Positions 2,409 through 63,129 of a stretch of DNA of 64,000 nucleotides are shown here, piece by piece. The first letter of the stretch is position 1, and the number at the start of each line of letters is the position of its first letter. Under the pieces are notes generated by a model that was not told the DNA's origin, made no database searches, and was given only the letters and a program-made list of their open reading frames with translations. The translations under genes and the position numbers were made by a program. The stretch is from Hemileia vastatrix (lineage: Eukaryota > Basidiomycota > Pucciniomycetes > Pucciniales > Zaghouaniaceae): NCBI GenBank assembly GCA_030280995.1, contig JASXTE010000013.1, forward strand, positions 13,543,501 through 13,607,500, given 5' to 3'.

Positions 2409-2413
2409 ACTAT

Positions 2414-16200: not shown

Positions 16201-17021
16201 TTCTAGTTTTTACTGCAATGAGAGAGGAGAAAATAAGATGAATTAATTTATATTTTTACTTTATATTAAAAAGAAAAATAATAAAATAAAATTTTTCAGG
16301 ATAAAATCAACTAAAATAATAATCAATTTATTAATTCAAAATAATTTAAAACCAGCATTATAATATAATCAACTGAAGAAATAAATTTAAATTTTTTATT
16401 AACAATTTTATGAGAATTATTATCAGGATTTTTAAATCAACTGAATACTTAACTACCAGGACTTAATGTCAACTAAAATAATTAAATATGACTTTTATAA
16501 AATTTTATTGTCAGGACAATTTGTCAACTGAAACAAATAAAATTAAATTTATCAGGATTTTTAAATCAACTGAATATTATAATAATTAATTTTTAAAATA
16601 TAATTTTTATTACTTCTAGGACTAAGAACACAATTGCTCTATTATTGTCAACTAGGAAAAATAAAAAAAAATAAAAAAATATTTCCAATTTACTTGACAC
16701 CTCCCCCTGTAAAATGAGCAAATTAATGCCACTTACAGAGTGCTGAGTAAAAGGAAATACGTAGAGTATGAAGAGTGCAAAGTGACCCACAAATAGTAAT
16801 CAATAATTACCACGAGATATATAACTATCAGATAGTATATAAGCTTAAGTTTTGTAGCGCGGTTCAATTCCCGTTTGCAGCAAAAAATAAGTCACGTGAT
16901 GTATGACGTTCGTTGTTTTTGTCGTCCAATTGTCCTTATAGGTACCTTGATGGCGATGGTCCCACGGCCTCCAATCCTCAAGATATTGATGCACCATCCA
17001 CAATTTGAAATGGCTCCCAAT
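16201..17021 (-). other. Gyp-A 5' leader with degenerate repeats
   Basis: Non-coding, between primer-binding site and gag. Plus-strand motifs like TCAGGATTTTTAAATCAACT recur at irregular 35-70-bp spacing between about 16296 and 16640 (at least six variants of CAGGAN...TCAACTRAA). Such leaders may hold packaging or translation signals, but I see no defined structure. Confidence 0.55.
17005..17019 (-). other. Primer-binding site of Gyp-A
   Basis: Two bases (AT) after the 5' LTR, the minus strand reads TGGGAGCCATTTCAA, starting with the TGG expected opposite a tRNA CCA end. The primer tRNA is not identified. Gyp-B has the same two-base gap. Confidence 0.7.
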
Positions 17022-20412: not shown

Positions 20413-20734
20413 TGTAGACTGTTCTAAAGTACTAAGCAGTAGACAAAATACGAGATGGGTTGGTTCTCCTTTTTAATTTATAAAAAGAAGTGCCTGCCAC
20501 TCTTATTTTTAAAGACAGTGTAATAATGTGTAACACTAATATTTGACTAGAAAGTTTATAAGTTGAGATGAGTTAAAGATAAGGAAAGAAAAAAATATTA
20601 CTATCTGGATATTTCTATTCTTAACAAGCGCTATTATCCACAGCTACTCCCTCTTGAAGCGCTCTCTTTGAATATGCCTTATTATACTAATAAAATATCT
20701 CTAATAATAGTTAATCCCACTGAATCTATATATT

Positions 20735-20825
20735 AGGGGGTGTCAGTTCTGGCAAATCCACACTTAAATTAAGTGCGGATTTCAAACCAAATCAGCACTT
20801 ACAAATCAGCACTTAAATTTTGCAA
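20735..20825 (+). repeat. PIF-B1 left end with subterminal repeats
   Basis: Terminal inverted repeat followed by variants of AAATCNGCACTTA in both orientations (AAATCCACACTT, AAGTGCGGATTT, AAATCAGCACTT twice). The same 12-mer recurs at the right end (24870-24949). Such subterminal copies are usual transposase-binding sites in this superfamily; that role is inference. Confidence 0.7.
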
Positions 20826-21105
20826 AAAAGTCACTTATTTCAAAAAAGGGTGTCAGTTATGACCTCAAATCAGCACTTTTTTCCCGTTTTTTTTCACAAC
20901 CACATTTTGGCCACAAAACATCCCTTCCTTTCTTACCCCATCCCTGTCACATGTGACACACTGACCTTCCTCGCTACCTACCCATCAATCCTTGGCACAC
21001 ACCCCTTCCTGACATTTTCAATATTTTGACCAGGCATGTTTACATTCTTTTTTACTTATTTCTTCTACTTTTTAATCTTTTTTCTTGTTATGTGCCAGTT
21101 TCATA

Positions 21106-22420
21106 ATGCCTCCCAGACATTCCAAATCTCAAAAGGTAACTCAAAAATCTGCTTCGTCACAAAAGTCTCCTCGTAAAGCAAGCCCTACACCTGAAAAATC
21201 AAAGGCAGGTTCAGGTCAGCTTAAAAAGGATGATTATCTCATCATAATCAACTTCCTTAAAATAAAATCAAATTTTGAAGCATGTTTTGGATGTGAAAAG
21301 TCCACTCGTATTGGACGTCCACCTTCTTCAAAGGTTAATGGCTACTTGTTGATGGCCAATGAAGTAAGGAAGAAAACAAGGGGGAGAATCGATATCAATC
21401 CTAAACAAATGAAGGAGAGATTTAAGAGTTACCATTCAAAATATAAAAAGACTCATCATGCTGTAAATGAAACTGGCTTTGGTATTGACGATGATGATTT
21501 GGAGATTGGAATTACTACTGTTTCCGAAAAGCTCAATGTCATGTGTCCTTTCTATGAGGAAATGGATAATCTTTTTGGCACCCGAGTTGATGTAAACCCT
21601 TGGTTTCTACACAATACTACTAAGCATATACCCTCTGGATCCAAACCTTCCTATAATCCTCCCAACACACCTTTACTTGAAGAAGATCAATCCCCTCCAC
21701 CTTCTAACCATAGTTCAGCTGAAGATGATCCCAACTATCAAGCAGAACAATTATATCGCAGAAGATCTGAATCCTCAGAGACCCAAAATTTAAATGTATG
21801 TTTACTTTTTGTTATTTCTTCAATTCTTCTCTGAATTTCTCTTTCTTTCTAGTCTCCTCCTACTCAAACTCAATCTCCATTAAATAATCTCAATTCTGGA
21901 AATGTGAATACCTCTTTAGAAGCTGCTTTAGAAGAACTTCCTGAAGCCTCTTGTTCAAACTCCAAACTAAAGCGTCGAGCCTCAACTTCAATGAACTTGA
22001 ACCATCTATTAAAACGTGGTAATACTTCAACAAGCTCATTTGGCTCCCTTGAGGATTATTTTGAAAAAAAAGATATAAGTAAGTTTTGTTTACTATATAT
22101 CTTAATCATTAACTCAATTTATTTATTTATTTCAATTTAATTTTCTCAGCGAAATCAACTATTGCAAATAATGCCCTTGACTTTGAGAAGATGAAGTTTG
22201 ATCATATGCTAAGGAAAGATCAGCAAGCCTTAGATTTGGAAGAAAAAAAATTTGAGGTAGAGCAGATGGAAAGAGTAAATGACTGTCAATTTCAAAGAGA
22301 AATGGCTACTTGTGAATTGGAAAAACAAGAGAGTTTTAAAAAAAAGATTTCATTATGGAATGTGTTAAAAATGGCCAATCTTATGAGGACATTAAAAAAT
22401 TACTTGACCTTTTCAATTGA
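21106..22420 (+). CDS. Harbinger MADF/Myb-like accessory protein with coiled coil (PIF-B1)
   Basis: Second protein of PIF/Harbinger elements, usually needed with the transposase for nuclear import and DNA binding. Three exons: 21106-21795, 21853-22078, 22150-22420. Introns are GTATGT...CTAG (57 nt) and GTAAGT...CAG (71 nt). The basic Ser/Pro N-terminus leads to a MADF/Myb-like domain (DDYLIIINFLKIKSNFEACF, RFKSYHSKYKKTHHAV, FYEEMDNLFGTRVDVNPW). A Ser/Pro-rich acidic linker and a Lys/Glu coiled coil (QQALDLEEKKFEVEQMERV) follow. The ATG at 21106 starts MPPRHSK, matching MPCHPRYS in PIF-A2. One indel in the A-run at about 22339-22346 shifts the last 25 residues; the other frame ends at TGA 22418. 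Otherwise open. Confidence 0.8.
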
Positions 22421-22594
22421 TAAATTGTTTTTCTAGTTAATTTAATTTTGGTAATATTTTCTTATATGCTGACTTATAAAAGGAAAAGAATATAGTACGT
22501 TATTTTTGACAAAAATTTGAATGTATAATAAAAATTTTCTATCTTTACTTTCTAGTCAATAAGTTTGCTTATCTAAATTTTTCTAAGTCATCTA

Positions 22595-22760
22595 TTTCAC
22601 ATGTCAGATTTAAAAAATTGGCAATGCCCTCCCCTGCATTTTATTGAAACAAGGGGTGGGTACCACCAAATTTTTCTAAGTCATCAATTTCACATGTCAG
22701 ATTTAAAAAATTGGCAATACCCTCCCCTGCATTTTATTGAAGTAAAGGGTGAAAGTCATC
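22595..22760 (+). repeat. CCCC/GGGG degenerate repeat, PIF-B1 copy
   Basis: Two adjacent units of about 87 bp (CCCTCCCCTGCATTTTATTG at about 22627 and 22721) separated by AAATTTTTCTAAGTCATC. Inverse orientation of the units at 29020-29440, and likewise downstream of the accessory gene. Confidence 0.75.
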
Positions 22761-23090
22761 AAAATACAATATAATTACATAAATTAATTAATATATAAAT
22801 AAGATATGTCAAGTATACTACTTTTAAAGTAATGACAATTCCTTAAGCCAAAATGCAGATCAAGTCTAGAAACTAGGTTCAATGCAAAGTATTTTTTGAA
22901 GCAACTTATTTAAATAATACTTTATTAAATTAAGTTGATCAATAAAGATTGATTGACAATATTGCAATTCTTAAATACAATAATTTTATTAAAAAATTTC
23001 AGATTACATATAAAAAAAATCAGTGACTTTTTCTATTACTTACAACTGTTTTTACAGAATTGAAAACTATGTTTCAGCTAATATTTTATG
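22761..23090. other. AT-rich spacer in PIF-B1
   Basis: No coding or bounded repeat recognised between the CCCC/GGGG units and the 123-bp array. Confidence 0.5.
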
Positions 23091-23650
23091 GAAGTGAACT
23101 CTGTTCTTCGCCCGAAGAACAGAGTTCATCCTCCTATTTTCACACTCTGTTTAAAAAGAATAAAATGACTTACCTGGAGAGATGAGTTTAGAAAAAAGAA
23201 ATATAAGTGAATGGAAGTGAACTCTGTTCTTCGCCCGAAGAACAGAGTTCATCCTCCTATTTTCAAACTCTGTTTAAAAAGAATAAAATGACTTACCTGG
23301 AGAGATGAGTTGAGAAAAAAGAAATATAAGTGAATGGAAGTGAACTCTGTTCTTCGCCCAAAGAACAGAGTTCATCCTCCTATTTTCACACTCTGTTCAA
23401 AAAGAATAAAATGACTTACCTGGAGAGATGAGTTGAGAAAAAAGAAATATAAGTGAATGGAAGTGAACTCTGTTCTTCGCCCGAAGAACAGAGTTCATCC
23501 TCCTATTTTCACACTCTGTTTAAAAAGAATAAAATGACTTACCTGGAGAGATGAGTTGAGAAAAAAGAAATATAAGTGAATGGAAGTGAACTCTGTTCTT
23601 TTCCCGAAGAACAGAGTTCATCCTCCTATTTTCACACTCTGTTTGCACCA
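23091..23650 (+). repeat. 123-bp tandem array with hairpins
   Basis: Units start (GAAGTGAACTCTG) at 23091, 23214, 23337, 23460 and 23583, exactly 123 bp apart; the fifth is partial. Each contains 14-bp inverted arms GAACTCTGTTCTTC / GAAGAACAGAGTTC around a 4-base loop and ACTTACCTGGAGAGATGAG. The complement of the last motif is CTCATCTCTCCAG-GTAAGT, a strong splice donor that also appears at 27117-27134. Near-identity of units implies recent amplification. Confidence 0.92.
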
Positions 23651-23773
23651 ATCTCCATCCCTTTCAATTCTATCAACACATGCTTGTCTTCCCTCCCCAT
23701 GCCTTTCGCTATCCTCCCAGCCCCATTGTATGCCATCCTCTTTTGATCCCCATTTCACCCCTCTCAACCTCTC

Positions 23774-23814
23774 GGCGGACTTGCTAGCAAGTCCGCCCCC
23801 CATATTGCATGGTG
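23774..23814 (-). repeat. 24-bp perfect palindrome, transposon-end module
   Basis: 23774-23797 is a perfect palindrome centred on TTGCTAGCAA with GGCGGAC arms. CCATATTGCATGGTG follows to 23814. It is the same module as at 7998, 43269, 53758 and 57186, and the only copy with the extended GC-rich arms. Upstream sequence is unrelated to the 11-bp repeats of the other copies. Confidence 0.75.
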
Positions 23815-23845
23815 TTAATGAACAATTAGCTGCAATCGTTCAATA

Positions 23846-23875
23846 ACTTAACGATTCGTTAACGAATCGTTAAGT
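23846..23875. repeat. 30-bp perfect palindrome
   Basis: 15-bp arms ACTTAACGATTCGTT / AACGAATCGTTAAGT meet with no loop. It lies 48 bp from the 24-bp palindrome and contains four CpG sites in an AT-rich setting. Role unknown: a hairpin end of a lost element or a dimeric protein site are possible. Confidence 0.85.
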
Positions 23876-23880
23876 GAAGG

Positions 23881-24165
23881 TTAAGGGGGGGTAGGAGTGA
23901 TATGAGGGAGGATTTGGGGGAGTTTTGAGGGGGATAGGAGGGGGGTTTTGAGGGGGGGTTTGGAGGGGGGGTTAGAGGCGGGTTTGGTGGGGATTTGGAG
24001 GGAGGATTTGGGGGATTTGGTGGGGGGTGGAGTGGAATGAGGGGAAGATATGAGGAGACCAAGAAGGGGGAGAAAGGGAGAGATGAGACCAAAGAGGGAG
24101 AAAAGGGAGGTTAGAGTGAGCCAAGGAGGGGTGAATGAGGCAGCCAAAGGGGGGAAAAGGGGGAT
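23881..24165 (+). repeat. G-rich purine block
   Basis: About 280 bp almost without C on plus, with more than ten runs of four or more G separated by 2-10 bases (GAGGGGGGTTTGG types) and loosely repeated. It lies exactly where the transposase catalytic region should be. Strong potential for G-quadruplex on plus. Pro-rich minus frames here (PPNPPNPP) are composition artefacts. Confidence 0.75.
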
Positions 24166-24641
24166 GATTCCAAGGAGTTGATGGCAGTGATACATCGTTT
24201 GGTATAAGTGTTAACTGAACCATACCCTAAATCAAAGACATTTTCTAAACGTTTCAAAGCGGCTCCATTACCATTTGAACCCAAACTGCATAGTGTGATG
24301 GCCAATTGAATTGAAGGATGTCGTTGTTCTTTTTGAGAATTATTGTGAAATATGGGATGATCCTGAATAAGCTCAAGCAATTTAAGGAAAAATTCCTGAG
24401 AAGTCCTGAACAGCTGTCTAAAACTGGGCGTAGATAGGTTAAGAAGTGTTTGGATGGTGTACTTGGGGGTATGAAGTACTTGAGGCTTTCTGGGAAGAAG
24501 GTAACGTTTCCTGGCCATTTTTGATAAAACGACAAAATCTTCTTCTAGATCAGAATCGGAATCAGAGTCCAAGAGCAGTTCAAGCGCCATGAAAGTCATT
24601 GCTTTATGTAATTTATCACGATTTGAAAGTGAGGAAGGCAT
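24166..24641 (-). pseudogene. PIF/Harbinger transposase N-terminal half (PIF-B1)
   Basis: Starts at ATG 24641 (MPSSLSNRDKLHKAMTF) and reads cleanly for about 155 residues: acidic DSDSDSDLEEDF, YLLPRKPQVLHTPKYTIQ, FRQLFRTSQEFFLKLLELIQ, RHPSIQLAITLCSLGSNGNG, GYGSVNTYTKRCITAINSLE. It then runs into the G-rich block. This is the helix-turn-helix part of the DDE transposase; the whole DDE catalytic core is absent. The equivalent domain of PIF-A2 spans residues 1 to about 165. Confidence 0.85.
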
Positions 24642-24869
24642 GACTCTTATATGATATGATATGAAGATGTAAGTGATGTACAATGTTTTGAGTTATGAAG
24701 TGTAATTCTGCGGAGTGCTGCGTATGAATGGGATGATGCTGACAAATCAGTGAAATGGGACTTGATGGTGAAATCAGCACTTTTGGTTGAGAAAGTGCGG
24801 ATTTGAGTGAAATAAGTGACTTATTTCATTTTGAAATCCACCAGTATTGGGGCTAGTGTGTTTTGGAAA

Positions 24870-24949
24870 TCCGCACTTATTTAAGTGCGGATTTGGTCAA
24901 ATTTAAGTGCGGATTTGTAAGTGCGGATTTGCCAGAACTGACACCCCCT
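24870..24949 (-). repeat. PIF-B1 right end with subterminal repeats
   Basis: AAATCCGCACTT and its inverse AAGTGCGGATTTG occur four times before the terminal repeat ending TGACACCCCCT. Confidence 0.8.
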
Positions 24950-25275
24950 ATTCTCTCTATGTTGCGCTTTTTCACTATACTATATGAAATACACACACAG
25001 ATGCACAAACTCTAAAAGACTCAGAAAATACCTTTTAATACTCTCTCAAACAATTAATCACAAAAAGATCTAATATCTTATACTGAGTACTATGATTATA
25101 GCTACACATATATCACTATATTGATTTTTCTATGATCTGTTTTTTTTTTAAATGACAACTAATGCGATTTTTCTTATTTTATTAACTAAATAGGGGGTAT
25201 CAATGTTCAGGGATCCGCAATTAGGGATCAGGAATTTTTTTTCCCGGGATCAGACATTATTAATTGCGGAAGATT

Positions 25276-25307
25276 CTTATCCACTAGCCCCAGGGCTAGT
25301 GGATAAG
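25276..25307. repeat. Subterminal hairpin of PIF-A
   Basis: 15-bp arms CTTATCCACTAGCCC / GGGCTAGTGGATAAG with a 2-base centre. PIF-A1 keeps it at 3130-3161 with one mismatch, so it belongs to the family rather than to the site. Confidence 0.8.
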
Positions 25308-25571
25308 GAATGCAGGATAATACATTATCCCGCCTCTTATACCCCAATTTCCATTCCTAATTCCTGATCCCAAACTCATCTCATCCATGATGAATTTGCA
25401 AGAAAGTCACATGACTTATAATTGCTGATGCCATCCTTAAGTATTTCCTCACTCTATGCTACTTAATTTTGGTGGCGAACACTTAAGTTTTTTTTCTATC
25501 TACACATCCCAACTGCACATTTGGTGGTGAATTCCCACTTCCCTCATCACATAACCCTTCCACCGGCAACA

Positions 25572-26831
25572 ATGAAACACCTCTCTACTAGGAAGCTGCT
25601 TCACTCAACAATGAATGCTATTACTTTTATTTTAGTTCTTTACTATAAATCTGACTCTGATTTGGAAGATGCTTTAGCTTATATGTGTTTTCTTTCCAAA
25701 AAGCGTTACATCATCACCAGGGGGCCAAATCTTTATCATGATCCCCGATATGATCTGGCCTCCATTCTCAACATTCCTCATTTAAACTTCACACAACTTT
25801 TTAGAACTTCTCCCGATTCTTTCTTCAAACTTTATCAACTCATCTCCGATCATCCTATCTTCCATAACAATTCTCATAACAAACAGCGTAATCCTGCCAT
25901 CCAACTTGCTGTTGCTCTATGTCGCTTTGGCTCAAATGGAAATGGTGCTGCCATAAGACGTTTGGATAATCTCTTTAACATAGGATATGGTACCATGATA
26001 TTATACACCAAGCGCTGTATGATTGCTATCCTTTCCCTCAAGTCTCAAACTCTTGCTTGGCCAACTCCAGAACAGCGACTTGAATCCTCTCAAGTAATGC
26101 AAGCTGAAGGTTTCCCTGGCTGTATAGGTTTTGTTGATGGCACAACCATCCCTTTGAGTCAAAAGCCTGCTCATGATGGCAACCATTATTTTGATCGCAA
26201 AAAAAGGTTTCTTCAAAATCTTCTCCAAGTTCTCATCTTTCACAATCTAACTTTTTATCTTCTTTCTAGATACTCTATTGCCATTCAACTTGTATGCGAT
26301 GTCAATAAAAAATTTATTGCTTTTCACAGTGGCTGCCCTGGATCATGTCATGACTCTTCCGTCTTCCAAAGAATGAGGATTTCTCAATCCCTTGAATCAT
26401 ACTTTGACGAATCTCAGTACCTCCTTGCAGACTCAGCATATGCAAGTGGAAAGTACATTATACCTGCTTTCCGTGGTGCAACTTCAGAAAATGACCCCAA
26501 AACTGCCTTTAATTATCACCTTGCACAATCAAGAGTACAAATTGAACATGCTATAGGTATTTTAAAGGGACGATTTTCTACTCTTCGGGAGCTCAGAATC
26601 CAATTTCAAAAAAAATTGGAGATCAAAACTGCAAATCATTGGATCTTGACTTGCGTAATACTCCACAATATTCTAGCTGATTTAAAGGATGAGTGGAATG
26701 ATCTATATGAAGAAGAGGATCCTGAACCACCACTGGCACTCCCCTCCCTTGATTCACAAATCATTCAATCAACCGGCATACGCCCCATTATAATGCCAAT
26801 TACTCTCCAACATTTCTCTTCACCCTTTTAA
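25572..26831 (+). CDS. PIF/Harbinger DDE transposase (PIF-A2)
   Basis: Cuts and inserts the element. Starts at ATG 25572 (MKHLSTRKLLHSTMNAI). The N-terminal half is a helix-rich DNA-binding part; the C-terminal half is a DDE_Tnp_4-type core. Catalytic residues: Asp in GFVDGTTIP (about residue 189), Asp in LLADSAYASGKYIIPAF, Glu in VQIEHAIGILKGRF. A 63-nt intron (26207-26269: GTTTCT, branch CTAAC at 26247, TTTCTAG) keeps the frame open if unspliced. Removing it joins DRKK to RYSIAIQLV, the continuous motif expected in the family, and leaves about 398 residues. No stops or frameshifts, so it is probably functional. Confidence 0.92.
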   Translation: MKHLSTRKLLHSTMNAITFILVLYYKSDSDLEDALAYMCFLSKKRYIITRGPNLYHDPRYDLASILNIPHLNFTQLFRTSPDSFFKLYQLISDHPIFHNNSHNKQRNPAIQLAVALCRFGSNGNGAAIRRLDNLFNIGYGTMILYTKRCMIAILSLKSQTLAWPTPEQRLESSQVMQAEGFPGCIGFVDGTTIPLSQKPAHDGNHYFDRKKRFLQNLLQVLIFHNLTFYLLSRYSIAIQLVCDVNKKFIAFHSGCPGSCHDSSVFQRMRISQSLESYFDESQYLLADSAYASGKYIIPAFRGATSENDPKTAFNYHLAQSRVQIEHAIGILKGRFSTLRELRIQFQKKLEIKTANHWILTCVILHNILADLKDEWNDLYEEEDPEPPLALPSLDSQIIQSTGIRPIIMPITLQHFSSPF

Positions 26832-28064
26832 TTTTTAATTTTTATGTTTTCATACTTTCCAAATGTCCTCTTTGTGTACTTTAATTACTTGGTTTTGTAT
26901 TTTGGTTTGTTGCATATTCATTTTTTTTTGAATTTACGGTGAATATCTTTTTTTTGGATGGCTCATTGGTTTTCTTTCACCAGCTCAACATGAAATCGCA
27001 TATTTTCTGAAATCGCATATTTTGTCAGTGATTTTTTTTTTCATTCATCCCTCATATCCTTTTCCTATTCTCCTCCAACATCCCTCAAAAAATTTGGTTT
27101 CATTCATTTTGTCATCTCATCTCTCCAGGTAAGTCATTTTATTCTTTTTTTTTGATTTTTTGATTACTAATTATAATTTTTTTTGTTTTTTTCTGTTTAT
27201 TTTATTTTTTTTATCTAAATTTTTTTTGTAAGTGGTTATTTTGGATTTCAATGGTATAATTAACCTTTTTTTTCTCTCCCTCTTAACTTTATTTTTTAGC
27301 TCCATCACCCTACTCTTCATCCCTCCTTGGCATTGTCAATATCCCCCCTTTCCCTTATTTCACTTTTTTTTGGCTCCATTTCATTGAAACACATACATTG
27401 CACATTCTTTATGCATTTCACTTACTCCATATTCAATTTCCCCACAATTCCAACATCAATCTTTCTCACTCTATTTTTCCTACTTTTCAATCAAGGTAAG
27501 TTTCATCTCCTTTTTTTCATGCCTATATGATATCTCATTCCTTTTATGAAAACTTCATACTTAAATATATGTATGACTCTTATCTGGATAACAATGAACT
27601 TATAAAACTCCTTTTGATCTCATCTTCATTACCACTTTTCAAGATTTTGTAAAATTTTGAAAATCAGACTCGGAATTAGGGTTAGGTTTATTCAAATCTA
27701 ATGTTCTTTTTTATTAAGATTCTCCTGAAGGCTACCTTTCATTTGCTGCAAACAGATTTGAATTTGATTCAGTGGTTGCTGAGATATTGACCATTAAAGT
27801 TGAGCCTTTTTTTTCCCAATTTAAATTTTTATTTCATTTTTTTATGTAACACATTAGGGTTAGGTTTATTTAAATCACATGTCCTTTAACTGAAGATTCT
27901 ACTATATCATATCTTTCATTTTCCACAAACAGGTTTGAATTAGGTTCAGTGGTTGCTGAGATTTTGACCTTTGAAGTTGAGCCTTTTTTCCAAATTTCAC
28001 TTGTCTTATTTCACATTTTTATATTGCATAATTAGAGGATAAGGATTCTGAAACTCTTATATGA
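26832..28064 (+). other. Leader/spacer between transposase and dioxygenase gene
   Basis: T-rich sequence with strong splice donors CCAG-GTAAGT (GT at 27129) and CAAG-GTAAGT (GT at 27496) and acceptor-like sites at 27300 and 28075. It may hold 5' exons of the dioxygenase gene. An open frame at 27327-27495 does not join the next exon in phase, so I do not call it coding. A 178-bp tandem duplication sits at 27675-28020. Confidence 0.5.
27675..28020 (+). repeat. 178-bp tandem duplication
   Basis: ATTAGGGTTAGGTTTATT starts at 27675 and 27853. Both copies continue through TTCAGTGGTTGCTGAGAT and GAAGTTGAGCC or close variants. Non-coding. Confidence 0.8.
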
Positions 28065-28721
28065 TTATTATCTAGGCATTTCAATTATATAGGCATATAT
28101 TTGTTGGTCAAGAATATCACTAAAGCTCAAAAAGATGAAGATTTTCGCTTATGGGACACTCTACCTTCCTTTGACTCTTTTCTTGCTTTTCGACTCAACA
28201 AGCTCTGTAATAAAGCATTTGAAGAAAATCATGAACTTACAACCAAAGTTGGAATACGGAATTGGTGTGACTCCGAATGGGAAGATATCAGCCACAAATA
28301 TCTTTTATTTTCTAATGTTATTATCACTCATTCTGGATTCCACAATAGGATTCATATCGATAGGAATGATGCCAATTTTCTTACTTTTGGAATATTCTCA
28401 TATATCAATCTGATAACTGGCCACCCAATACCATCTCCAGCTAAAATAAAAGGACATGGTTTATATTTTCCAGACCACCGGTGCATCATTGATTTTGGTT
28501 TGGGAAATGGTATTATTGAAACTATTTGGAATTCTTCTAAGGATAATCATCAAACGACCAAAGCTCCTCCTGGTTTGGAATCCTGTCAAGATTTCACTCA
28601 TTTTGGTTGCTCATTTCAAATCAGTCATAAGTTGATACAAAGAATCAATAAGGTAAAGAAAGAAGGTAAAGTTATTCGATTTAAAAAAACTTTATCTAGA
28701 TCCAAAAAGTATGGGGATTAG
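28065..28721 (+). CDS. TET/JBP-like 2OG-Fe(II) dioxygenase, 3' exon
   Basis: Open from 28065; an acceptor TTATCTAG ends at 28075. About 215 residues. The pattern fits the TET/JBP-like oxygenases annotated in rust and other basidiomycete genomes: Fe ligands HxD in NRIHIDRND and a distal His in SKDNHQTT, joined by IDFGLGNGIIETIW and followed by DFTHFGCSFQIS. These enzymes oxidise 5-methylcytosine or thymine. The 2OG-binding Arg I would expect in the FTxFG motif is His (CAT, one CpG transition from CGT), which may impair activity. The reading frame has no ATG, so an upstream exon must supply the start. The family call rests on motif memory, not a search; another double-stranded beta-helix oxygenase is possible. 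Confidence 0.68.
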   Translation, partial: LLSRHFNYIGIYLLVKNITKAQKDEDFRLWDTLPSFDSFLAFRLNKLCNKAFEENHELTTKVGIRNWCDSEWEDISHKYLLFSNVIITHSGFHNRIHIDRNDANFLTFGIFSYINLITGHPIPSPAKIKGHGLYFPDHRCIIDFGLGNGIIETIWNSSKDNHQTTKAPPGLESCQDFTHFGCSFQISHKLIQRINKVKKEGKVIRFKKTLSRSKKYGD

Positions 28722-29019
28722 AGTTGTCATCAAAAATTTTATATTTTTTCATAAATTTTTAATAAATATTTTTTATATATCAATTTTCTCAAGTAATGTG
28801 ATGAGCCATCGACCTTGTGTTGTATAACAGGTAATCATGATAACATTTATTTGTTTCATGGGGTTCCTCTTGCCTATACCTGTGGAAAGTCCCAAACTTT
28901 TGTTTCTCGACTTGGTCTGCATTTTGGCTTGAGGGATTGTCATTACTTTAAACTAGGGAAATTGATATATATTAGATATTTATTTAATAATTTATGTAAT
29001 TATATTAAATTTAGATGAC
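28722..29019. other. Spacer
   Basis: AT-rich. A short Cys/His-containing open frame at 28815-29018 lacks support. Confidence 0.4.
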
Positions 29020-29440
29020 TTTCACCCCTTACTTCAATAAAATGCAGGGGGGGGGTATTGCCAAATTTTCAAATCTGACATGTGAAATTGATGACTTAGA
29101 AAAATTTTGGTGATACCCACCCCTTGCTTCAATAAAATGCAGGGGAGAGTATTGCCAATTTTTTTAAACAGATATAGAATTTTTTTGACTTGTAAATATT
29201 TTTGTGATACCCGTCCCTTACTTCAATAAAATCCATGGGGGGTTGTGCCAAAATTTCTTATAAGACTTGTGAAATTCTTGACATGTAAGAATTTTTGGGA
29301 TACCGGTAAAATGCAGGGGGTAGTAAAGCCAAATTTTCATATAAAACTTTCAAGATTCATGACATGAAAGAATTTTTGTGATACCCACCCCTTACTTCAA
29401 AAAAATCCAGGGGTGGGGGATTGTCAAATTTTCAAAGGAG
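29020..29440 (+). repeat. Degenerate 85-95-bp tandem repeat with CCCC/GGGG motif
   Basis: Five units keyed by CTTCAATAAAATGCAGGGG at about 29032, 29127, 29221, 29306 and 29395. Each reads GATACCCACCCCTT...AATGCAGGGG...GCCAAATTTTCA. C-runs and G-runs in one unit are self-complementary, giving a short stem. It lies in the convergent 3' region. Confidence 0.85.
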
Positions 29441-29570
29441 ACTTGAAAATTTTATTTAAAAAAAGAATATTTAACATTAAAATACGATATTTCAAGAAAT
29501 ACAGAAAATAATTGTAAAATTTATGTACAAATAAATATGAACACATGAAGTGTGAAAGAAATAAAAGAAA

Positions 29571-30965
29571 CTAGTCAACAAAAAATTTCATTAAACGTTC
29601 TATTTCTTCAACAGATTTTTTTGCTTTAATGCATTCGATCAAGAAATCTTTCTTTTTAGAACTTTCTTGGAGATCATGCTTATACTTCATCTGTTCCATT
29701 AAGTTTTGATGCTTGAGTGTTTTTTCCTTATTTTTGGATTTTTCAATACTAAGAGTTAACTCAAACTTCTTCTCCTCCAAATCTTGGGCCCTACCATCCT
29801 TCTGTAAAGAGAGCTCAAACTTCTTCTCCTCCAAATCTTGGATCTGATCATCCTTCTGTAAGGAGAGCTCATACTTCCTCTCTTCCAAATCTTGTACTCT
29901 GTCATCCCTCCTTAAAGAGAGCTCATATTTCTTCTTTTCAAAGCTCAGAGTCTCTTTAGCAATTTCCACTTGTTCTAGAGTGAGAATAAAAATTAACATA
30001 AAGTAGAAGAAAAGCAGAGTAAAGTAATAAGAGGTATGATATCACTTACCAGCATCACGTTTCTCTAAAACTGTTCCATCAAAGAAAAAGGTGTTTGTGA
30101 TGAAGTATCACTTTTTCGTCTTCTTTGGGAGAGGAAATTTAGACTAGTTGAGCCCTTCTCTTTTTGTTCAACGTAGCATTTTCCTCCTCATCATTGTCAC
30201 TAGCTTCAGACTCAGTTGATTGAGGATCCTGGGTTTGTTCATCAGCCTTTTAAGAAATAAGAAAAAGATAAGTAAATAAAATAATAGAATTGATAAGATA
30301 AAAGAAACAGACCTGAGTTAGATTGGGTTGGGTTAAATCGCCAATAGGATCAATAGCAAAGCTATCTAGATTCGTAGAATTTAGAAGAGGGGAGGCTTGA
30401 GTGGAGGAAGAGGATGGGAAAAGATTTGCTTCAACATCGTGTTCGGAGATAGGATCTTCTCCATCCAACATGTTTACAGGATTAACATCGGCTTGCTCTC
30501 CAAAAATTGCATCCATCTCTTTAAAGTAAGGACATAAAGAATCAAGTTTATTGTCTATGGATTTTATGCCCTTAGTTATATCATTGTTGGTAATCCCAAA
30601 ATCAGTGGAAGATGAAAGAGCCTTTGCCTTCTTGTATTTTGCTCGGTAATGCTTGAAGCTTTCAGACATCTGTTTAGGAAAAAGATCAATCCTTCCCTTG
30701 GTCTTATTGCGTAATTCATTTGCCATTAGAAGATAGCCATTAACTTTTGATGCTGGGGGCCGTCCTACTTTAGTGGAATACTCAGTACCAAAACAAGAAT
30801 CATAGTTAGATTTGGTTTCAGCCAGTTGATAAGAATGAGATGTTCATCTTTTTTTAATTGAACAGTCTTTGATTTCTTGGCTGAGCGGGGGAAATAGGAA
30901 GTAGTGGGAATTGAAGAACAACTGGGTGATGGCTGCCTTTGAGAATATCTAGGATGACAAGGCAT
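29571..30965 (-). pseudogene. Harbinger MADF/coiled-coil accessory gene (PIF-A2), broken
   Basis: Starts at ATG 30965 (MPCHPRYSQRQPS). Exon 1 30965-30313 has VQLKKDEHLILINWL, then one missing base near 30823 shifts to KSNYDSCFGTEYSTKVGRPP; MADF/Myb-like motifs (ELRNKTKGRIDLFPKQMSES, YFKEMDAIFGEQADVNP) follow. Introns: 30312-30247 and 30049-29975 (GTAAGT...CTCTAG). Exon 2 is acidic (QSTESEASDNDEEEN) and is broken by a frameshift and a stop. Exon 3 is a coiled coil built from a 20-residue unit (ELSLQKDDQIQDLEEKKF) repeated about three times at 29771-29960, ending KKDFLIECIKAKKSVEEIER. Same architecture as the PIF-B1 gene. Confidence 0.85.
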
Positions 30966-31316
30966 GTTATTATAAATGAAGATGAAAAGGAGCAGAAACA
31001 AGCAGATGAGATAGCGAGATGAAAAGGAGCAGAATCAAATAGATGAAATGGGGAGAAATTCTGAGCGGATAGAATGAACAGGATGGGATGAGAATGGAAG
31101 TGCGCAGCAAGGTAGAAGGCTGGGATATCCAGAAAGTTGTCCAAGATGTGGTTATGAAATATTGAGGATAAAAATGTCAGATAAGAGGTGAACATTGACA
31201 CGTAAAGTGTCTAATAACCCAATTATTAGCAAAAATAATTGCGGAAGATAATTGGGGTATGCAGATTATTTTCCGCAATTAATTTAATTGCGGATCGGTC
31301 AACATTGATACCCCCT
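30966..31316 (-). other. PIF-A2 right end and accessory-gene upstream region
   Basis: AG-rich leader (30966-31080), then the terminal region with AATTGCGGAAGATAATTGGG and the terminal inverted repeat. It presumably contains the accessory promoter; no clear TATA seen. Confidence 0.5.
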
Positions 31317-32101
31317 AATAGATAGATCGACCAGTCCTCTCCTTTTGTCCCTACCTAATAGTCCTCCTTTTATATTCTTCCAGCGCTCAAGACACAGTTC
31401 CCTAATGGATCTCCAGCGCTGACTCTAGCGCCACATTTGTAAAACAATAACTAATTATTTAGTATGCTACTTACACTGCTTGCAACAACTACAGCGCCTA
31501 AATCAGACCCTATAATTACTAACACTAGTATTAACTTGTTTCACTGATTCTCCACATATGCGCTTTTAACTATACCTTGTTTTGTTTCAGCGCTAGTTCC
31601 AGGTTTGACTTATCCTAACGCTGCGTCTAGTTGCCTTAACTCTAGGGTAGTTTTACGATTGAGTCCCCACTCTCTTTGCTTTTATACTAGGTTTGTAGTT
31701 CTGACAGCTCGCTTAACTAGTTAGCCTTCTTCATTACTTGTCTCAGTAGGTTTCCCAACTGGCCGTGGTACAGCATACCATGCACTTGAGTCGTCCTTAA
31801 TTCATGACTTTCTTCTTAATGCGTAACACATACTTTTTGGAAAGCCCAAATTCATATTGTTTAGCGCGTAATAGTCCTAAGTTAATAATACACAATTCCC
31901 TATTGTGCGGCACATCTTGCTGCAAAATCCAAGCGCACAGACCCTTAATCTTTTTCCGTGATTCAATTTCCTTTGTTCCTTGAAACACACAAATACATAT
32001 TATATTTTAACATTTCCTGCTGCGCTAAATCCCCTTTGTTCTTCCTGGACTATGTGCACTGATTGGTCTAAAATCACACTTCCTGCAAGGCGCGTACTAC
32101 A

Positions 32102-35188: not shown

Positions 35189-37108
35189 TTATTCTGGTAG
35201 TTTTTCCTCATTCCGGAGGTTATCTTGTATCACTGGAACACCCCATGTGTAGGATCTTTTGATCTGATCTGCGGCCACACACCGCTTCCACTCAGTACCA
35301 TCTAATTCCTCCAGTAAGTAAGACCCTCCAGTTATCTGCTTTCTTATCCTATAAGGACCATTCCATCTGTCAGAAAATATCTTCCCCCATTGGCTTTCTA
35401 AACTTCTATTATAAACCAAAACCAAATCTCCTGGGTTCAATGGCTTTCTTAACCTATGCGCTAAGCGCTCATCCCAATATTTAACTGACTTGTCCCGGAT
35501 CTGCATCATTCTTTCATACACTTTCTCCACAAACTCGTCTTTTCTTTCAAGTTGCGCTACCCTTGCTAGAATTAAATCTTTGGTTGAGTGCACTTGATCC
35601 CAATCACATCCTAGAAAAGATCCAGCCTCCAGATCAATAGGTAATACCACCCTTTGAAAACCTAATGGCAAGTAGTTCTTCCACTTCGCCCCATTATTTC
35701 CACATAACTTAACTAGCACATCTTTTATAACTTGATGCCCTCTTTCTACCATTCCCTCTGCTTCAGGATAATATGGTGTTGCAACTCGTAACTTTGCGCC
35801 AATACCTTTTACTACTTCTTGGAATTCTCCTGCAAATTCAGCGCCACCATCTACGGTTACCATCTCCATTACCCCATACCTATAAATCCATTCTTTCTTC
35901 AAAAACTCGGCCACATTACTTGCCTTGAGATTTATCAACGGCGCTGCTTCAACCCATCCTGATAGATCATCCCTGGCTACTACCAAGTATTTAAAGCATC
36001 CTTCTTTTATATGGACTGCATCTAAACTGACCCTACCAAAAACAGTATCCTCGCCCGTTGCTCTCCCTTTTTCTTTTGGCTTTCTGTAACTTCTGCGCTG
36101 GCATTCAGGACAAGATTTAACCCAATCTCTTACTTTATTTCTCATGTTGGGCCACCAGAATCTTTCCCTAACTCTGCGATGAGTCTCATCTTGACCTCTA
36201 TGTCCTAAATTCTCATGTAACTCCCTGAGTATCTTCTCCTTCCCTTCCCTAGGTTGAATAACTAACTGAGGAGACAAAGCTTGATTCTTCCATAACTTCC
36301 CATTTTTAATAAAATAGCCTTTAGCGTGCTTTGTAATATTGCGCCAAACCTTTTTATCGCAAAAATCCGGTCGACTATTACCTTCCAAATATAACTTTAA
36401 CAACTCTACTCCCTCATCTGTAGATGTGTTGTCTTCTAAATACTCCCCCTCTTCGAGTTGAGTACTACTATCCTGAATTCCCTTTGAAGAATCTTCATCA
36501 TCTGACTCCTCCACTTCCTCGCCTTGCACACTCCTTGTTGCTACATTAGCTTCAGTGTTCCCTAAATCCAGTTGCAGTTCATCCTTGCTACAAACATCCT
36601 TTACATTTTCAGCATTTAATTTTATGTCTTTTTGGACATTCCACATTACTAGTTTATTGTCATCACGGACAATACTACCTACTAGTTTATGGTCTTCGCG
36701 GACATTCTTGCCTGATAGTTTATTGTCGTTGCGGACATTCTTGCCAAATTTTGTATAGCAATAATCTATCCCGTTTACCCATCTCTTATCTTCTTCAAAT
36801 TCTTCCGCTTCCGAGTCTTCTTCACACAATGGTCTTCTCGACAGCGCATTTGGAATAGTGAAAGATTTCCCTGGCTTATGGACTAAATCAAAAGAAAAAA
36901 AATTAATCTGCGCTACCCACCTTGTCATGGGTGCATCTGGTAAACTCGGGATACTAATCATTTGCACCAACGATAGCCCATCAACCTGCAGCTCGAAATG
37001 CTGCCCCCAAAGCATCCATTGTAGCTTTTTAAGAATCTTTGCTACTCCTCATAACTCCAGCTTAGACTGGGAGTACCTAGACTCCACTTTGGTAAAAGTC
37101 TTGAACTC
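35189..37108 (-). pseudogene. Gyp-B RNase H end and integrase
   Basis: From 37108 the frame continues RNase H (KTFTKVESRYSQSKLEL, stop TGA near 37053, then MLWGQHFELQVDGLSLVQM). SFDLVHKPGKSFTIPNALSR ends RNase H. A charged linker contains tandem 12-13-residue repeats (GKNVREDHKLV, GSIVRDDNKLV). The integrase has an HHCC finger (HENLGHRGQDE...CPECQR), then catalytic Asp in VSLDAVHIKEG, Asp in VTVDGGAEFAGEF and Glu in YYPEAEGMVERGHQ. The GPY/F-like WNGPYRIRKQI and a basic end follow. 608 residues open. No chromodomain seen. Two upstream stops separate it from RT. Confidence 0.9.
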
Positions 37109-38605
37109 TTAAAGGACAGGTCTATCATTACCTTCTTCGTCCTCCTGCATAAAAACTGCTCCCACTGCGGACACACTAGAATCCACCGCTAGAGTAATTT
37201 TTCCAGTGCCTGGTCCATACTCCAATTTCTTCAAAAGAATATCTTTTCCTACAATCCTCTTTAATAACTTGAATGACTCCTCACATTCCTCCATCCAATC
37301 CCATACAACATCCTTTCTTGTTAAGCGCCGTAAAGGTGAAGAAAACAAATCAAAATCTTGAATAAACATTCTTACATATGTACAAATGCCTAAAAACCCT
37401 CTAACTTCCTTAGTATTTCTTGGTCTTGGCCATGTAAGTACCTTATTCCTCTGTTTTTCAGCAACGATTCTCCCTTCCTTGCATACCACATGCCCCACTA
37501 TATCTAGCGCTGGAACACAACAGGCAAATTTAGACCCAGAAATCGTCAATCCTGCCTCCTCTATCCTAAATAGCACTCTTTCCAGGGTAATCGCATATTC
37601 CCAAATAAACTTTCTAATATACAGATCTTCTTTTAGCACTTCCCCTTCATAATTACTGGCTGGTCCTTTTATACCGCCATCATCAATGAAAATTCCCACA
37701 TGTTCTGGAATTTCATCCTGTAATATCCACATCATCTGTGCTTGATATACCGCCACAGAATTTGTTGCGCCTTGCAGTAACCTTGTCAACCTAAAGCGCC
37801 CCAGTGGTGTTTCAAACGTCGTCATGGGTCTGGACAATCCGTCCAACTCGCGCTCATCGTATCCTCCCATAATATCACCTAATCTGTAACATGCACGCCC
37901 TGCAAAAGATTCCACAAATTCTTCTGGCGTTGGTGGCATCCCTGCATCCTTTACTGTAACCTTGTTCATCTCCCTAAGATCATGAACAACCCTTAATTTA
38001 CCATTATGTTTGACCACACAAAACACTGGACTTGAATAAAGAGACATAGACTGTTCATACAAGCCGGACTTTAACCTTCCCCTAATTAATTCCGTACACT
38101 CTTCTCTTATAGCCGCCGGTATTGGAAAAGCCTTCTTTTGCCACAGCGCATGAGGTATAACTGGAACAATATAAGGTTTACCATAAGAGTGTTTTAACAA
38201 ACCTCTTTACTCTTCTGAAAACGCAATAGCCTTTTCCCTAAGAACCATAACATGTAATAATGACTTCTTTTCTTCCTGCGATAACCAGCCCTCTGGTCCA
38301 AAATCTACCATCTGAAGCCTTTCCATCGTAATCTTACTGGTGAACGCAAAACCAGGTGGAAACTTTGTTAAAGGTGTATCATAAGGATTTCTAAATAGCG
38401 CCGACCTCTGCAAAGGAGGATTCAAATCAGGCATCGCTATATTCACTGGTTTAACCTTAACAGCTACTGGTTTATACTTAGATGCAAAACAGTCCTTACT
38501 TCTTCCTTCATTAATTAAAATAAAACCCTTTCTAATATAACTACGGATTACACCTAAATCCTGTTTTTGTCTTTTCTTTTTTAATATAAGTATAAAAATA
38601 TCCAA
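37109..38605 (-). pseudogene. Gyp-B reverse transcriptase and RNase H start
   Basis: N-terminal block 38605-38207 (SKYKPVAVKVKPVNIAMPDL, FGPEGWLSQEEKKSLLHVM), stop TAA at 38204 (Gyp-C has Glu there), then 363 residues of RT: YSSPVFCVVKHNGKLRVVHD, LGDIMGGYDERELDGLSRPM, LLQGATNSVAVYQAQM and catalytic GIFIDDGGIKGP. The RT thumb (TRKDVVWDWMEECEESFKLL) and the RNase H opening ITLAVDSSVSAVGAVFMQED end at TAA 37109. Catalytic residues are intact, so only nonsense codons disable it. Confidence 0.92.
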
Positions 38606-38764
38606 AATTAAAGAAATTAAAAAGCTTAGGTATAATACATTCTACAGTAGTATTCCCAAGACACCTATGAAGTACCGCTTTACGTATCCCTCCCTGTTGG
38701 ACTGACTGGTCACTATCTGGGTTCCTCTCATCCTGGGAGATAGTAACACCTAAAATGCCAGTCC
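38606..38764 (-). other. Gyp-B protease-RT junction, frame-disturbed
   Basis: The most protein-like reading (SLGTGILGVTISQDERNPDS, GGIRKAVLHRCLGNTTVE) is in a different frame from the flanking protease and RT. Either two frameshifts or a small intron would explain it. Gyp-C has a GTAG-ended T-run at the matching place, which hints at an intron acceptor. Confidence 0.4.
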
Positions 38765-40378
38765 CTAATGAAAATGTTGGCAACTTCCTGGCAGTCGCCC
38801 TATCTCCTCATCTGAGACTTCCTCATAAAACTCTCTTTCTTTCTCTAACCGCGCAGCTCCAGAGTACTTAGTTTCCCAGCCACCATCCTTGGGCGCTACT
38901 AAGACTGCTGTTACTGGAACACCGTCATCACCCATAATACTTATTCCTATAGTCTTATTTAAACAATAATCTATAGTTGCCGAATAATCCATTAAAAATG
39001 GCGTGCCTAAAACTGGTTTAACTACACCCATTGGAACATAAAAATGTATATCTCTTGTTGCTCCCGCAACTCTAGTGCGTACATACTCTTCTACACCTAT
39101 AACAGGTAACCTACCTCCCCCAATTCCTGCGACAGTGCCTTTGCCTTCTTTTAAAGGAAGACCTAATTCCACTGCGTCATCCACTGATACCACGTTGATT
39201 TGTGAACCCTTATCCACTAACGCTTTAATTAGCTTACCATTTACCGTAATAGTTAAATACCCTAAGGGTCCTGCGTAATGTGGAGCCCTAGGTAATCCAA
39301 CAACTGGCTGAAATGACTGTTCCGCCATATCAAACTCAGCGCAATTAGCAATCCTTTGCTTTCTGCACTTTTCCACGATTCCATTTGCTACATCTGGCGC
39401 TACTCCAGTCAGTATCCCCAATGGAACAGAAACTGTAGTCTTCAAACATTCCGCAACTAAATTCTTGGCAGCTTTAGGAAAATCAGAATGAACCAGGCGC
39501 TGAATTCTCCATTTAAGCTGAGTTGCCTTGGCACCAGCTTTTGCTCTTCCAGTTGGGTTCTTTGGAGTATTATGCTTTTCTCCTGGCATTCCTTCAGCAG
39601 GTACCGCTCTTTGCTGTACTACTACTGGCTCCTCCAACATTGCCGTCTGTTCTACTTCCTGGTGATCCACGCCATAACCTCCAGAGTCCATACCATCCAT
39701 TTCAACATCCTTGATAGGTGCAGGTGAATTTTCTCTAGTAGTATACCCTACTTCCTCCATATCCTCTGGATTCGCATACCTAGCGCCAACCCTTCTTGGC
39801 CTAGTAATTGTAGGTGGGGCCATTTTCTTATGCTTTGCCGCAAACATCTCCAATTGTGCTGCGGTAAGTGGCGCTGCAACCGCTTCTTCTTTTACTTTAA
39901 AATCTAACACCGCACAAGTAACTGCAAAATTAACCAACTTCGCATCCTTGCCTTTTTCCTTATTTTCCGGCTCTTTTCCCTTGCTTGACCTGCTTTCCAT
40001 AGACTTTTTATTAATATGATCAATTACCATGGCTCGCATCCCTCGATCTTTGTCTTTAATCAACTTGGTACCATCTTCCAACATAAGCGTAGTCCCATAC
40101 TCGTAAACTACCTTTTCCTCTTTATCTTTTTGAAGGGCATTACACCTCATCCTTGTATGCCCCTCTTTATTACAATAATAGCACACCATAGCGGAAAAAC
40201 GCAAAGTTTGAGGAGAACTCTTGGGCCTAAACAATTTTTTTGCTTTTGCCGCTTCAACTATCTTCTTCTCCAACTCATCGATTCTTGCCATGACTGAATC
40301 TGGATCTTTAGAGAGAATTTTAACTTTAGGAGAGGAAATCTGAGAAGGCAATCGTACGCCTGGCGCATCTTCCTCCAT
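38765..40378 (-). pseudogene. Gyp-B zinc knuckle and aspartic protease
   Basis: 537 open residues. A CCHC knuckle at about residue 71 (CYYCNKEGHTRMRC) binds RNA. A long Pro/acidic linker follows. The protease core is LIKALVDKGSQINVVSVDDA, where the catalytic triplet reads DKG instead of DTG or DSG, which probably kills activity. The second protease motif is VLGTPFLMDYSATIDY. The block follows gag in the same frame after a TAG at 40379-40381. Homologous to the Gyp-C remnant at 8035-9367. Confidence 0.88.
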
Positions 40379-41074: not shown

Positions 41075-41334
41075 TCCCGAAATATTAAATCAAAGCAAAG
41101 ATCACAAAGAAAAAACACACGCTTGGTAATTAAACCTGACTGCTTTCACGATACAGCCCTATGCTATCCTCTGATAACGGCTATTAATCCACTTGTTGTA
41201 GACCCTACGACTCTTCTGCTGAAGCGCCGGCTTGATTACGTCCTCTTTGACAAAACCCTAAAAAAAAAAAAAAAAAAACCAAACAATCTAATCAAAAACA
41301 CTAGTTACAATTATGCCACTGTTGGGACACCAAT
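41075..41334 (-). other. Gyp-B 5' leader and primer-binding site
   Basis: Minus strand after the 5' LTR: AT, then TGGTGTCCCAACAGT (41318-41332), a primer-binding site starting with TGG. An 18-base A-run on plus lies near 41262-41278. Gag starts 260 bp from the LTR. Confidence 0.75.
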
Positions 41335-42677
41335 TGTAGACTGTTCTAAAGTACTAAGCAGTAGACACAATGCGAGATGGGTTGGTTCTCCTTTTTAATT
41401 TATAAAAAGAAGCGCCTGCCACTCTTATTTTTAAAGACAGTGTAATAATGTGTAACACTAATATTTGACTAGAAAGTTTATAAGTTGAGATGAGTTAAAG
41501 ATAAGGAAAGAAAAAAATATTACTATCTGGATATTTCTATTCTTAACAAGCGCTATTATCCACAGCTACTCCCTCTTGAAGCGCTCTCTTTGAATATGCC
41601 TTATTATACTAATAAAATATCTCTAATAATAGTTAATCCCACTGAATCTATATATTCTCTCTATGTTGTGCTTTTTCACTATACTATACGAAATACACAC
41701 ACAGATGCACAAACTCTAAAAGACTCAGAAAATACCTTTTAATACTCTCTCAAACAATTAATCACAAAAAGATCTAATATCTTATACTGGGTACTATGAT
41801 TATAGCTACACATATATCACTATATTGATTTTTCTATGATCTGTTTTTTTTTAAAATGACAACTAATGCGATTTTTCTTATTTTATTAACTAAATAGATA
41901 GATCGACCAGTCCTCTCCTTTTGTCCCTACTTAATAGTCCTCTTTTTATATTCTTCCAGCGCTCAAGACAAAGCTCCCTAATGGATCTCCAGCACTGACT
42001 CTAGCGCCACATTTGTAAAACAATAACTAATTTATTAGTATGCTACTTACACTGCTTGCAACAACTACAGCGCCTAAATCAGACCCTTTAATTACTAACA
42101 CTAGTATTAACTTGTTTCACTGATTCTCCACATATGCGCTTTTAACTATACCTTGTTTTGTTTCAGCGCTAGTTCCAGGTTTGACTTATCCTAACGCTGC
42201 GTCTAGTTGCCTTAACTCTTGGGTAGTTTTACGATTGAGTCCCCACTCTCTTTGCTTCAATACTAGATTTGTAGTTCTGACCGCTCGCTTAACTAGTTAT
42301 CCTTCTTCATTACTTGTCTCAGTAAATTTCCCAACTGGCCGTGGTACAGCATACCATGCACTTGAGTCGTCCTTAATCCATGACTTTCTTCTTAATGCGT
42401 AACACATACTTTTTGGAAAGCCCAAATCCATATTGTTTAGCACGTAATAGTCCTAAGTTAATAATACACAATTCCCTATTGTGCGGCACATCTTGCTGAA
42501 AAATCCAAGCGCACAGACCCATAATCTTTTTCGGCGCTTCCATTTCCTTTTTTCCTTGAAACACACAAATACATATTATATTTTAACATTTCCTGCTGTG
42601 CTAACTCCCCTTTGTTCTTCCTGGACTACACGCGCTGATTGGTCTAAAATCACGCTTCCTGTGAGGCGCGTACCACA
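41335..42677 (-). repeat. Gyp-B 5' LTR, intact
   Basis: 1343 bp, TGTAGACTG to GTACCACA. It lacks both Harbinger insertions and so shows the empty target sites (41654-41656 ATT; 41893-41895 AAT). Confidence 0.95.
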
Positions 42678-61595: not shown

Positions 61596-61601
61596 TTTTA
61601 A

Positions 61602-63085: not shown

Positions 63086-63129
63086 GGCTACATTGGAGAA
63101 TAAAGAAATTAACTTAGAAACAATTTACT

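What the first reader, a model, noticed from the sequence alone, without database searches (positions are those of the whole stretch)
25192..31316. A Harbinger transposon that carries a TET/JBP-like DNA dioxygenase
Between an intact DDE transposase and its MADF partner, PIF-A2 holds an exon with the HxD...H layout and the GLGNGIIETIW / FTxFG motifs of TET/JBP-like 2OG-Fe(II) oxygenases. Such genes are known in basidiomycetes mainly beside KDZ-type transposons (established knowledge). I do not know of one inside a PIF/Harbinger element. An enzyme that oxidises 5-methylcytosine could help an element escape methylation or create favourable target chromatin. The terminal repeats and 3-bp duplication show that the gene is internal cargo.
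Basis: partly seen in the sequence, partly recalled or inferred. Interest (0 to 1): 0.88.

Follow-up and report, generated by a model that had tools for sequence, protein, structure and literature searches.

The report
Transposon family carrying TET-like DNA-oxidising enzyme
A family of jumping genes in a large, probably rust-fungus genome carries its own copy of a TET-like enzyme that may strip the methyl marks used to silence it; such elements were described in 2025, and this looks like a distinct variant in which the enzyme gene is swapped between element families and often lost.

Summary
Window 25192-31316 is a PIF/Harbinger element with 33-nt terminal repeats and a 3-bp AWT target duplication, proved by an empty site at 41854 and by 12 of 12 matched ends. 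Between its transposase and its Myb/SANT-like partner lies an exon of Pfam PF20515, Tet-like 2OG-Fe(II) oxygenases (E 7e-29). The gene is true internal cargo: all 11 of 29 other close copies that keep the region carry it in the same place. Two corrections. The window's copy is damaged (first exon missing, partner gene frameshifted), and no fully intact element was seen. And TET genes inside Harbinger elements of rust fungi are already published (Kojima 2025, 'PHISTA'). What differs here: a 3-bp instead of TA duplication, a weakly Myb/SANT-like partner, strong purifying selection on the TET gene (dN/dS about 0.06 between subfamilies), exchange of the gene between element families, and its loss from the younger copies (18 of 29 share one of two deletions; 3 of 3 read lack it). 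The family's DNA shows a roughly tenfold excess of CpG transitions, the footprint of the methylation that such an enzyme would oppose. The anti-silencing function is inferred, not shown.

The parts
25189..25191 (.). left 3-bp target site duplication AAT
   Evidence: sequence; empty site at 41854-41936
25192..25223 (+). left terminal inverted repeat, 5'-AGGGGGTATCAATGTT...
   Evidence: inverted repeat, 91% with 31285-31317
25467..26831 (+). PIF/Harbinger DDE transposase ORF, open; contains a probable short in-frame intron (judged by eye)
   Evidence: DDE_Tnp_4 5.9e-27; 40 genomic copies scored at 99-100% of 3795 first-look candidates
27298..28077 (+). segment peculiar to the window copy (two 177-bp direct repeats at 27675-28022), standing in place of C103-element bases 2017-4116, where other copies hold TET exon 1
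   Evidence: no significant match to exon 1 in the window
28078..28092 (+). 3' end of the TET intron (acceptor AG 28091-28092); homology to other TET genes starts here
   Evidence: alignment with L019, L020, L030 and others
28093..28721 (+). TET-like gene, exon 2 with catalytic HxD...H; gene 5'-truncated in this copy
   Evidence: PF20515 7e-29; conserved residues
29023..29433 (.). 94-bp tandem repeats (4.5 units, 68% matches) between TET and the coiled-coil-like ORF
   Evidence: TRF; first unit matches in 24 of 30 TET loci
29571..30041 (-). coiled-coil-like ORF (label by eye; no Pfam family above cut-off)
   Evidence: present in the C103, C260, C348 and C631 copies, in part in C747
30250..31034 (-).
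   Evidence: weak Pfam PF13837, below cut-off
31285..31316 (-). right terminal inverted repeat
31317..31319 (.). right target site duplication AAT
41854..41936 (+). paralogous empty target site
   Evidence: 97.7-100% to both flanks over 44 bases each, single AAT

Best explanation
A young, high-copy PIF/Harbinger family carries four genes: DDE transposase, TET-like dioxygenase, a coiled-coil-like protein and a Myb/SANT-like partner. Shown: the TET gene is internal cargo at a fixed place; between subfamilies it is under purifying selection with its Fe(II) ligands conserved; it has been exchanged between PIF families; and the younger copies have lost the region. Inferred: the protein oxidises 5-methylcytosine on the element's DNA and so delays host methylation, silencing and CpG decay. 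It probably works in trans, since copies without the gene spread well. The window's copy is a degraded member.
For: PF20515 7e-29 for the exon and 9e-34 for a near full-length paralogue. Copies C103 (7357 bp) and C348 (7380 bp) hold transposase, two-exon TET gene, coiled-coil-like and Myb/SANT-like ORFs between TIRs. The other 9 of 9 copies predicted to keep the gene have exon 2 at the predicted offset. Target duplication matched in 12 of 12 copies, 5 ATT and 7 AAT. dN about 0.13 with saturated dS between two subfamilies, ratio about 0.06. H, D and distal H kept in 34/34, 31/34 and 31/34 of the sequences covering them and in the Puccinia graminis and Austropuccinia psidii relatives. Tree conflict: AU p about 1e-72 (transposase data) and 0.011 (TET data). 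CpG transitions about tenfold over other C/G transitions among 30 copies.
Against: No enzyme assay, expression or methylation data. No fully intact element was seen: C103 has a stop in the transposase and one in TET exon 2; C348 has a stop in the transposase and a broken TET exon 1; 5 of the 9 exon-2 stretches hold a stop. 18 of 29 close copies lost the region yet are the younger ones, so the gene is not needed in cis. CpG decay did not separate copies with and without the region: all differences from consensus 34 of 140 against 39 of 86, private ones 10 of 44 against 5 of 46, opposite directions. The structure model was useless (pLDDT 38), so the fold rests on profile matches. Tet_JBP (PF12851) itself does not match.
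Confidence: 0.6

Rival explanations
1. The TET gene is an inert passenger carried along by the transposase, with no benefit to the element.
For: 18 of 29 close copies lost the region and are younger; many copies have stops.
Against: dN/dS about 0.06 between two subfamilies, with differences falling on third codon positions; catalytic residues kept; three other TET lineages, one locus each, also sit directly behind PIF transposases.
Confidence: 0.12
2. The enzyme acts on another substrate (N6-methyladenine, thymine, RNA or a protein) or helps target choice or excision instead of lifting cytosine methylation.
For: PF20515 is distant from Tet_JBP. The usual 2OG-binding Arg after the distal His is not obvious; a conserved THFGCSFQ stretch stands there (the place of the Arg is recalled). 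Kojima 2025 says that other activities cannot be excluded and cites 6mA oxidation by CcTET.
Against: CpG transition excess suggests that cytosine methylation is a real burden on this family.
Confidence: 0.2
3. The TET exon came in by a separate, nested or chance insertion into this one copy.
For: The window copy has odd sequence at 27298-28077 directly before the exon.
Against: 11 of 11 other copies that keep the region have the gene in place, with TIR and duplication outside it in the 9 read at both ends.
Confidence: 0.01

Closest known systems
PHISTA, TET+ Harbinger elements of rust fungi (Kojima 2025, PMC12730594)
   Same: Harbinger-type DDE transposase, a TET-like gene as cargo, at least one further protein
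   Different: PHISTA is defined by TA (2-bp) duplications and its third proteins have no Myb/SANT domain; here the duplication is 3 bp AWT and the partner is weakly Myb/SANT-like. PHISTA transposase sequences were not at hand, so kinship was not tested.
PU-type TET/JBP dioxygenases of Pucciniomycetes (Kojima 2025)
   Same: the nearest named relatives are proteins of Austropuccinia psidii (43%) and Puccinia graminis (37%); HxD kept
   Different: that paper found seven TE lineages as carriers; here only PIF flanks were seen, but flanks were probed with PIF sequences only (30 of the 150 scored loci)
KDZ (Kyakuja-Dileera-Zisupton) elements with TET/JBP genes (Iyer et al. 2014, not held; known through Kojima 2025)
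   Same: TET-like gene next to a fungal transposase
   Different: another transposase group; 8-bp duplications where given
VANDAL/VANC anti-silencing system of Arabidopsis (PMC5735166, abstract read)
   Same: TE-encoded anti-silencing factor (proposed here); tandem repeats next to the genes
   Different: VANC acts by sequence-specific binding (recalled: not a dioxygenase); repeat targeting is untested here and partly contradicted

Membership tests
PF20515 Tet-like 2OG-Fe(II) oxygenase superfamily | profile match above the curated cut-off | tested here: met
   101.8 bits against 27
PF20515 Tet-like 2OG-Fe(II) oxygenase superfamily | HxD and distal H (2-His-1-carboxylate) | tested here: met
   present in the window copy; H 34/34, D 31/34, H 31/34 over 35 sequences, 34 of which cover them
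PF20515 Tet-like 2OG-Fe(II) oxygenase superfamily | complete domain in the window copy | tested here: not met
   profile positions 46-211 only; exon 1 missing
canonical TET/JBP (PF12851) | Tet_JBP profile match | tested here: not met
   no PF12851 match up to E 1 in the Pfam scan of the exon; none in the genome, where the 14 controls did not ring either
canonical TET/JBP (PF12851) | oxidation of 5-methylpyrimidines in DNA | not testable with these tools
   needs an enzyme assay
PIF/Harbinger | DDE_Tnp_4-type transposase | tested here: met
   5.9e-27
PIF/Harbinger | terminal inverted repeats and 3-bp target duplication | tested here: met
   12 of 12 copies. The duplication is AWT; the textbook TWA is recalled, so the motif differs
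PIF/Harbinger | second protein with Myb/SANT-like domain | tested here: inconclusive
   PF13837 in 2 of 3 proteins scanned, best E 0.0021, below cut-off; structure model failed; no relatives in the protein search
PHISTA | TA dinucleotide duplication | tested here: not met
   empty site shows 3 bp; the variable base agrees on both sides in 12 of 12. Flanks also read TA on both sides, so a flank-only reading could say TA
PHISTA | transposase groups with PHISTA in a tree | not tested
   reference sequences not available here

The most novel reading that the evidence does not exclude
A TET+ lineage of 3-bp-duplicating Harbinger elements outside PHISTA, in which the TET gene is a shared, trans-acting anti-silencing cassette: it passes between co-resident PIF families independently of the transposase, and TET-less deletion derivatives live off it and now outnumber and outpace the complete elements.
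Probability: 0.35. Interest if true: 0.62.

Novelty: new variant of a known kind. Interest (0 to 1): 0.47.

Why it matters
It gives a natural experiment on whether transposon-borne TET enzymes really protect transposons. One genome holds many near-identical elements with and without the gene, in DNA that bears a strong CpG-decay signature. Methylation maps of the two classes would test the anti-silencing idea directly. The tree conflict also indicates that such genes move between element families as cassettes within one superfamily and one genome.

Tried and rejected
Separate insertion of the TET exon: rejected (11 of 11 copies). PF12851 search: no candidates, controls silent, so uninformative alone. 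Structure prediction of exon 2 with 4 sequences and of the neighbouring element's Myb/SANT-like protein alone: pLDDT 38 and 39; no fold search was made on them. PDB sequence searches: nothing credible. Protein search with the neighbour's Myb/SANT-like protein: none at E 0.001. NCBIfam: no curated cut-off reached. Rfam on 20700-31400: 7 matches, none at its gathering score. CpG spectrum of copies with and without the TET region: contradictory, inconclusive. Repeat-targeting idea after VANC: kept only as a lead, because 2 of the 3 TET-less copies read (C631, C747) have also lost the 94-bp repeats. Copy count of the TET exon by DNA search and DNA methyltransferase search (PF00145): not completed. 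Host species: not named by any tool; rust fungus is inferred from the nearest relatives, genome size and composition.
Full report
What is there. The window lies in a 747.6 Mb genome of 791 contigs, GC 33.6% in the window. The element at 25192-31316 has 33-nt arms (91%) and AAT on both sides. The transposase ORF (25467-26831) matches DDE_Tnp_4 at 5.9e-27. The exon 28065-28721 matches PF20515, Tet-like 2OG-Fe(II) oxygenases, at 7e-29.

Is the TET gene cargo? A DNA search with the transposase scored 40 copies at 99-100%, out of 3795 first-look candidates; the best 30 were fetched as loci, the window itself among them. Of the 29 others, 11 continue into the region that leads to TET, and 18 carry one of two junctions, shared by 6 and 12 copies. 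Two of the 11 were read through: C103 (7357 bp) and C348 (7380 bp), each TIR to TIR, with TET exon 1, a short intron, exon 2, a coiled-coil-like ORF and the Myb/SANT-like ORF. The other nine were tested by fetching 901 bases at the predicted offset: 9 of 9 hold exon 2 (one stretch ended inside the exon, and 5 of the 9 have at least one stop). Three of the 18 were read downstream (C260, C631, C747) and none has its own TET gene; the right end of C747 was not found, and C631 is nested in an older PIF element that has a TET gene. Both ends of 12 copies could be compared, the window among them: the duplication matched in 12 of 12, ATT in 5 and AAT in 7. The variable base agrees on both sides, so it is 3 bp and not TA. 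Nine of the 11 TET+ copies are in this set; for L042 and L053 the right end was not fetched, and L053 lacks its left terminal bases.

State of the window copy and of others. Homology to other TET genes begins at 28078, inside the intron; the first exon, about 190 codons in C103, is absent from the window. Bases 27298-28077, with two 177-bp repeats, stand in its place and match nothing else in hand except a weak 97-base hit in L012. The partner gene has a frameshift near 30843, while C348 and C260 are open there. With 1.4% difference from the consensus this is the most diverged of the 30 copies. Others are damaged too: C103 has a stop in the transposase and one in TET exon 2; C348 a stop in the transposase and its TET exon 1 in two frames. 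No element with every gene open was seen in this subfamily. C260 has an open transposase but no TET; exon 2 is open in C348 and in 3 of the 8 stretches that cover it whole; in another subfamily L026 has a TET frame open over 389 codons.

Selection and active site. Between the window's subfamily and the L026 subfamily exon 2 has dN 0.13 and dS about 2.2, ratio 0.06; other pairs of different subfamilies give 0.05-0.24 where dS could be estimated, pairs within a subfamily 0.16-0.64. dS is near saturation, so the ratio is rough, but the differences fall mostly on third codon positions. HxD and distal H are kept in 34/34, 31/34 and 31/34 sequences and in the relatives from a metagenome (P0001), Austropuccinia psidii (P0002) and Puccinia graminis (P0003). 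Those three were the only hits at E 0.001 of two searches of 5.8 billion proteins.

TET genes are many here, and often PIF-borne. The PF20515 search had 10849 candidates and scored 150, all over the cut-off; this is a lower bound. Of the 30 best loci, 24 have the 94-bp PIF repeats near the gene, and 15 have the transposase or coiled-coil-like protein within the 1.5 kb fetched. Six (L005, L007, L010, L023, L025, L027) show only low-complexity PIF-like flanks. Flanks were not probed for other transposases. For three other TET lineages, one locus each, 3 kb more was fetched upstream: 3 of 3 have a PIF transposase in the same order and orientation. One of these transposases (L026) is 96.6% identical over 176 residues to that of the window's own neighbour element (about 20724-24692), which has no TET match and so is a TET-less relative of a TET+ family.

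Exchange of the gene. The window's transposase is nearer to L001 (81% protein identity, pS 0.20) than to L026 (60%, pS 0.75), and the coiled-coil-like ORF agrees (71% against 39%). But its TET exon is nearer to L026 (78%) than to L001 (55%); synonymous sites of TET are saturated in both pairs (pS 0.72 and 0.73). Transposase data reject the TET grouping (AU p about 1e-72) and TET data reject the transposase grouping (p 0.011). The groups were named after seeing the identities, seven sequences were used, and one locus, L001, carries the conflict. The reading is that TET genes have been swapped between PIF families. Kojima 2025 reports such transfers between superfamilies.

Age and mutation. Over the first 1.76 kb, copies that keep the TET region differ by 0.0110 on average, the two deletion classes by 0.0037 and 0.0055. 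The losers seem to have spread last. Fetching only the copies nearest to the window's transposase may bias which were seen. In 30 copies CpG transitions seen once occur at 0.25 per site, against 0.026 at other C/G sites; transversions 0.094 against 0.058. Three Gypsy-like stretches in the window (label by eye) have CpG observed/expected 0.01-0.06, a fourth 0.62, the PIF element 0.35. Cytosine methylation followed by deamination is the natural reading. Whether TET+ copies decay less could not be shown: the two counts point in opposite directions.

How it works, best account. Shown: cargo, conservation, exchange, loss. Inferred: the enzyme oxidises 5mC on element DNA, delaying silencing and decay; because TET-less copies prosper, it probably acts in trans or was needed only in some phases. 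The coiled-coil-like and Myb/SANT-like proteins may bring transposase or TET to the ends; this is a guess.

What is known. Kojima 2025 (PMC12730594; abstract and sections 2, 3.1, 3.4 and the first part of 4 read) reports TET genes in 15 Harbinger families of six rusts, with TA duplications, no Myb/SANT third protein, and the same functional proposal. In the listings (9, 4 and 15 of 73 papers listed; searches returned none) I saw no other title on TET genes in Harbinger elements; those papers were not opened. So the finding is a new variant, not a new kind.

Noticed in passing
window 28796-28970 and 29023-29433: A non-coding block 3' of the TET gene and the 94-bp repeats after it stay similar between subfamilies whose TET synonymous sites are saturated: 86-93% for the block against the L026-type loci. 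It may be a terminator, a binding array or the result of gene conversion; the repeat holds AATAAA on the TET strand.
   Followed up: partly
window 23088-23644: 123-bp tandem repeat (4.5 copies) with a hairpin-like core in the TET-less neighbour element; the same core stands at the deletion junction of the TET-less copy L033 (by eye).
   Followed up: no
window 3063-6649: Related PIF element, rearranged between transposase and partner genes and without a TET match; CpG o/e 0.13.
   Followed up: partly
window 10645-12945, 14443-16209, 59363-63124: Gypsy-like stretches almost free of CpG (o/e 0.01-0.06), while the one at 35189-41089 has 0.62: strong CpG loss, perhaps age-dependent.
   Followed up: partly
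L044/L065 (C631): A TET-less copy inserted inside an older PIF element that itself carries a transposase and a decayed TET gene.
   Followed up: partly
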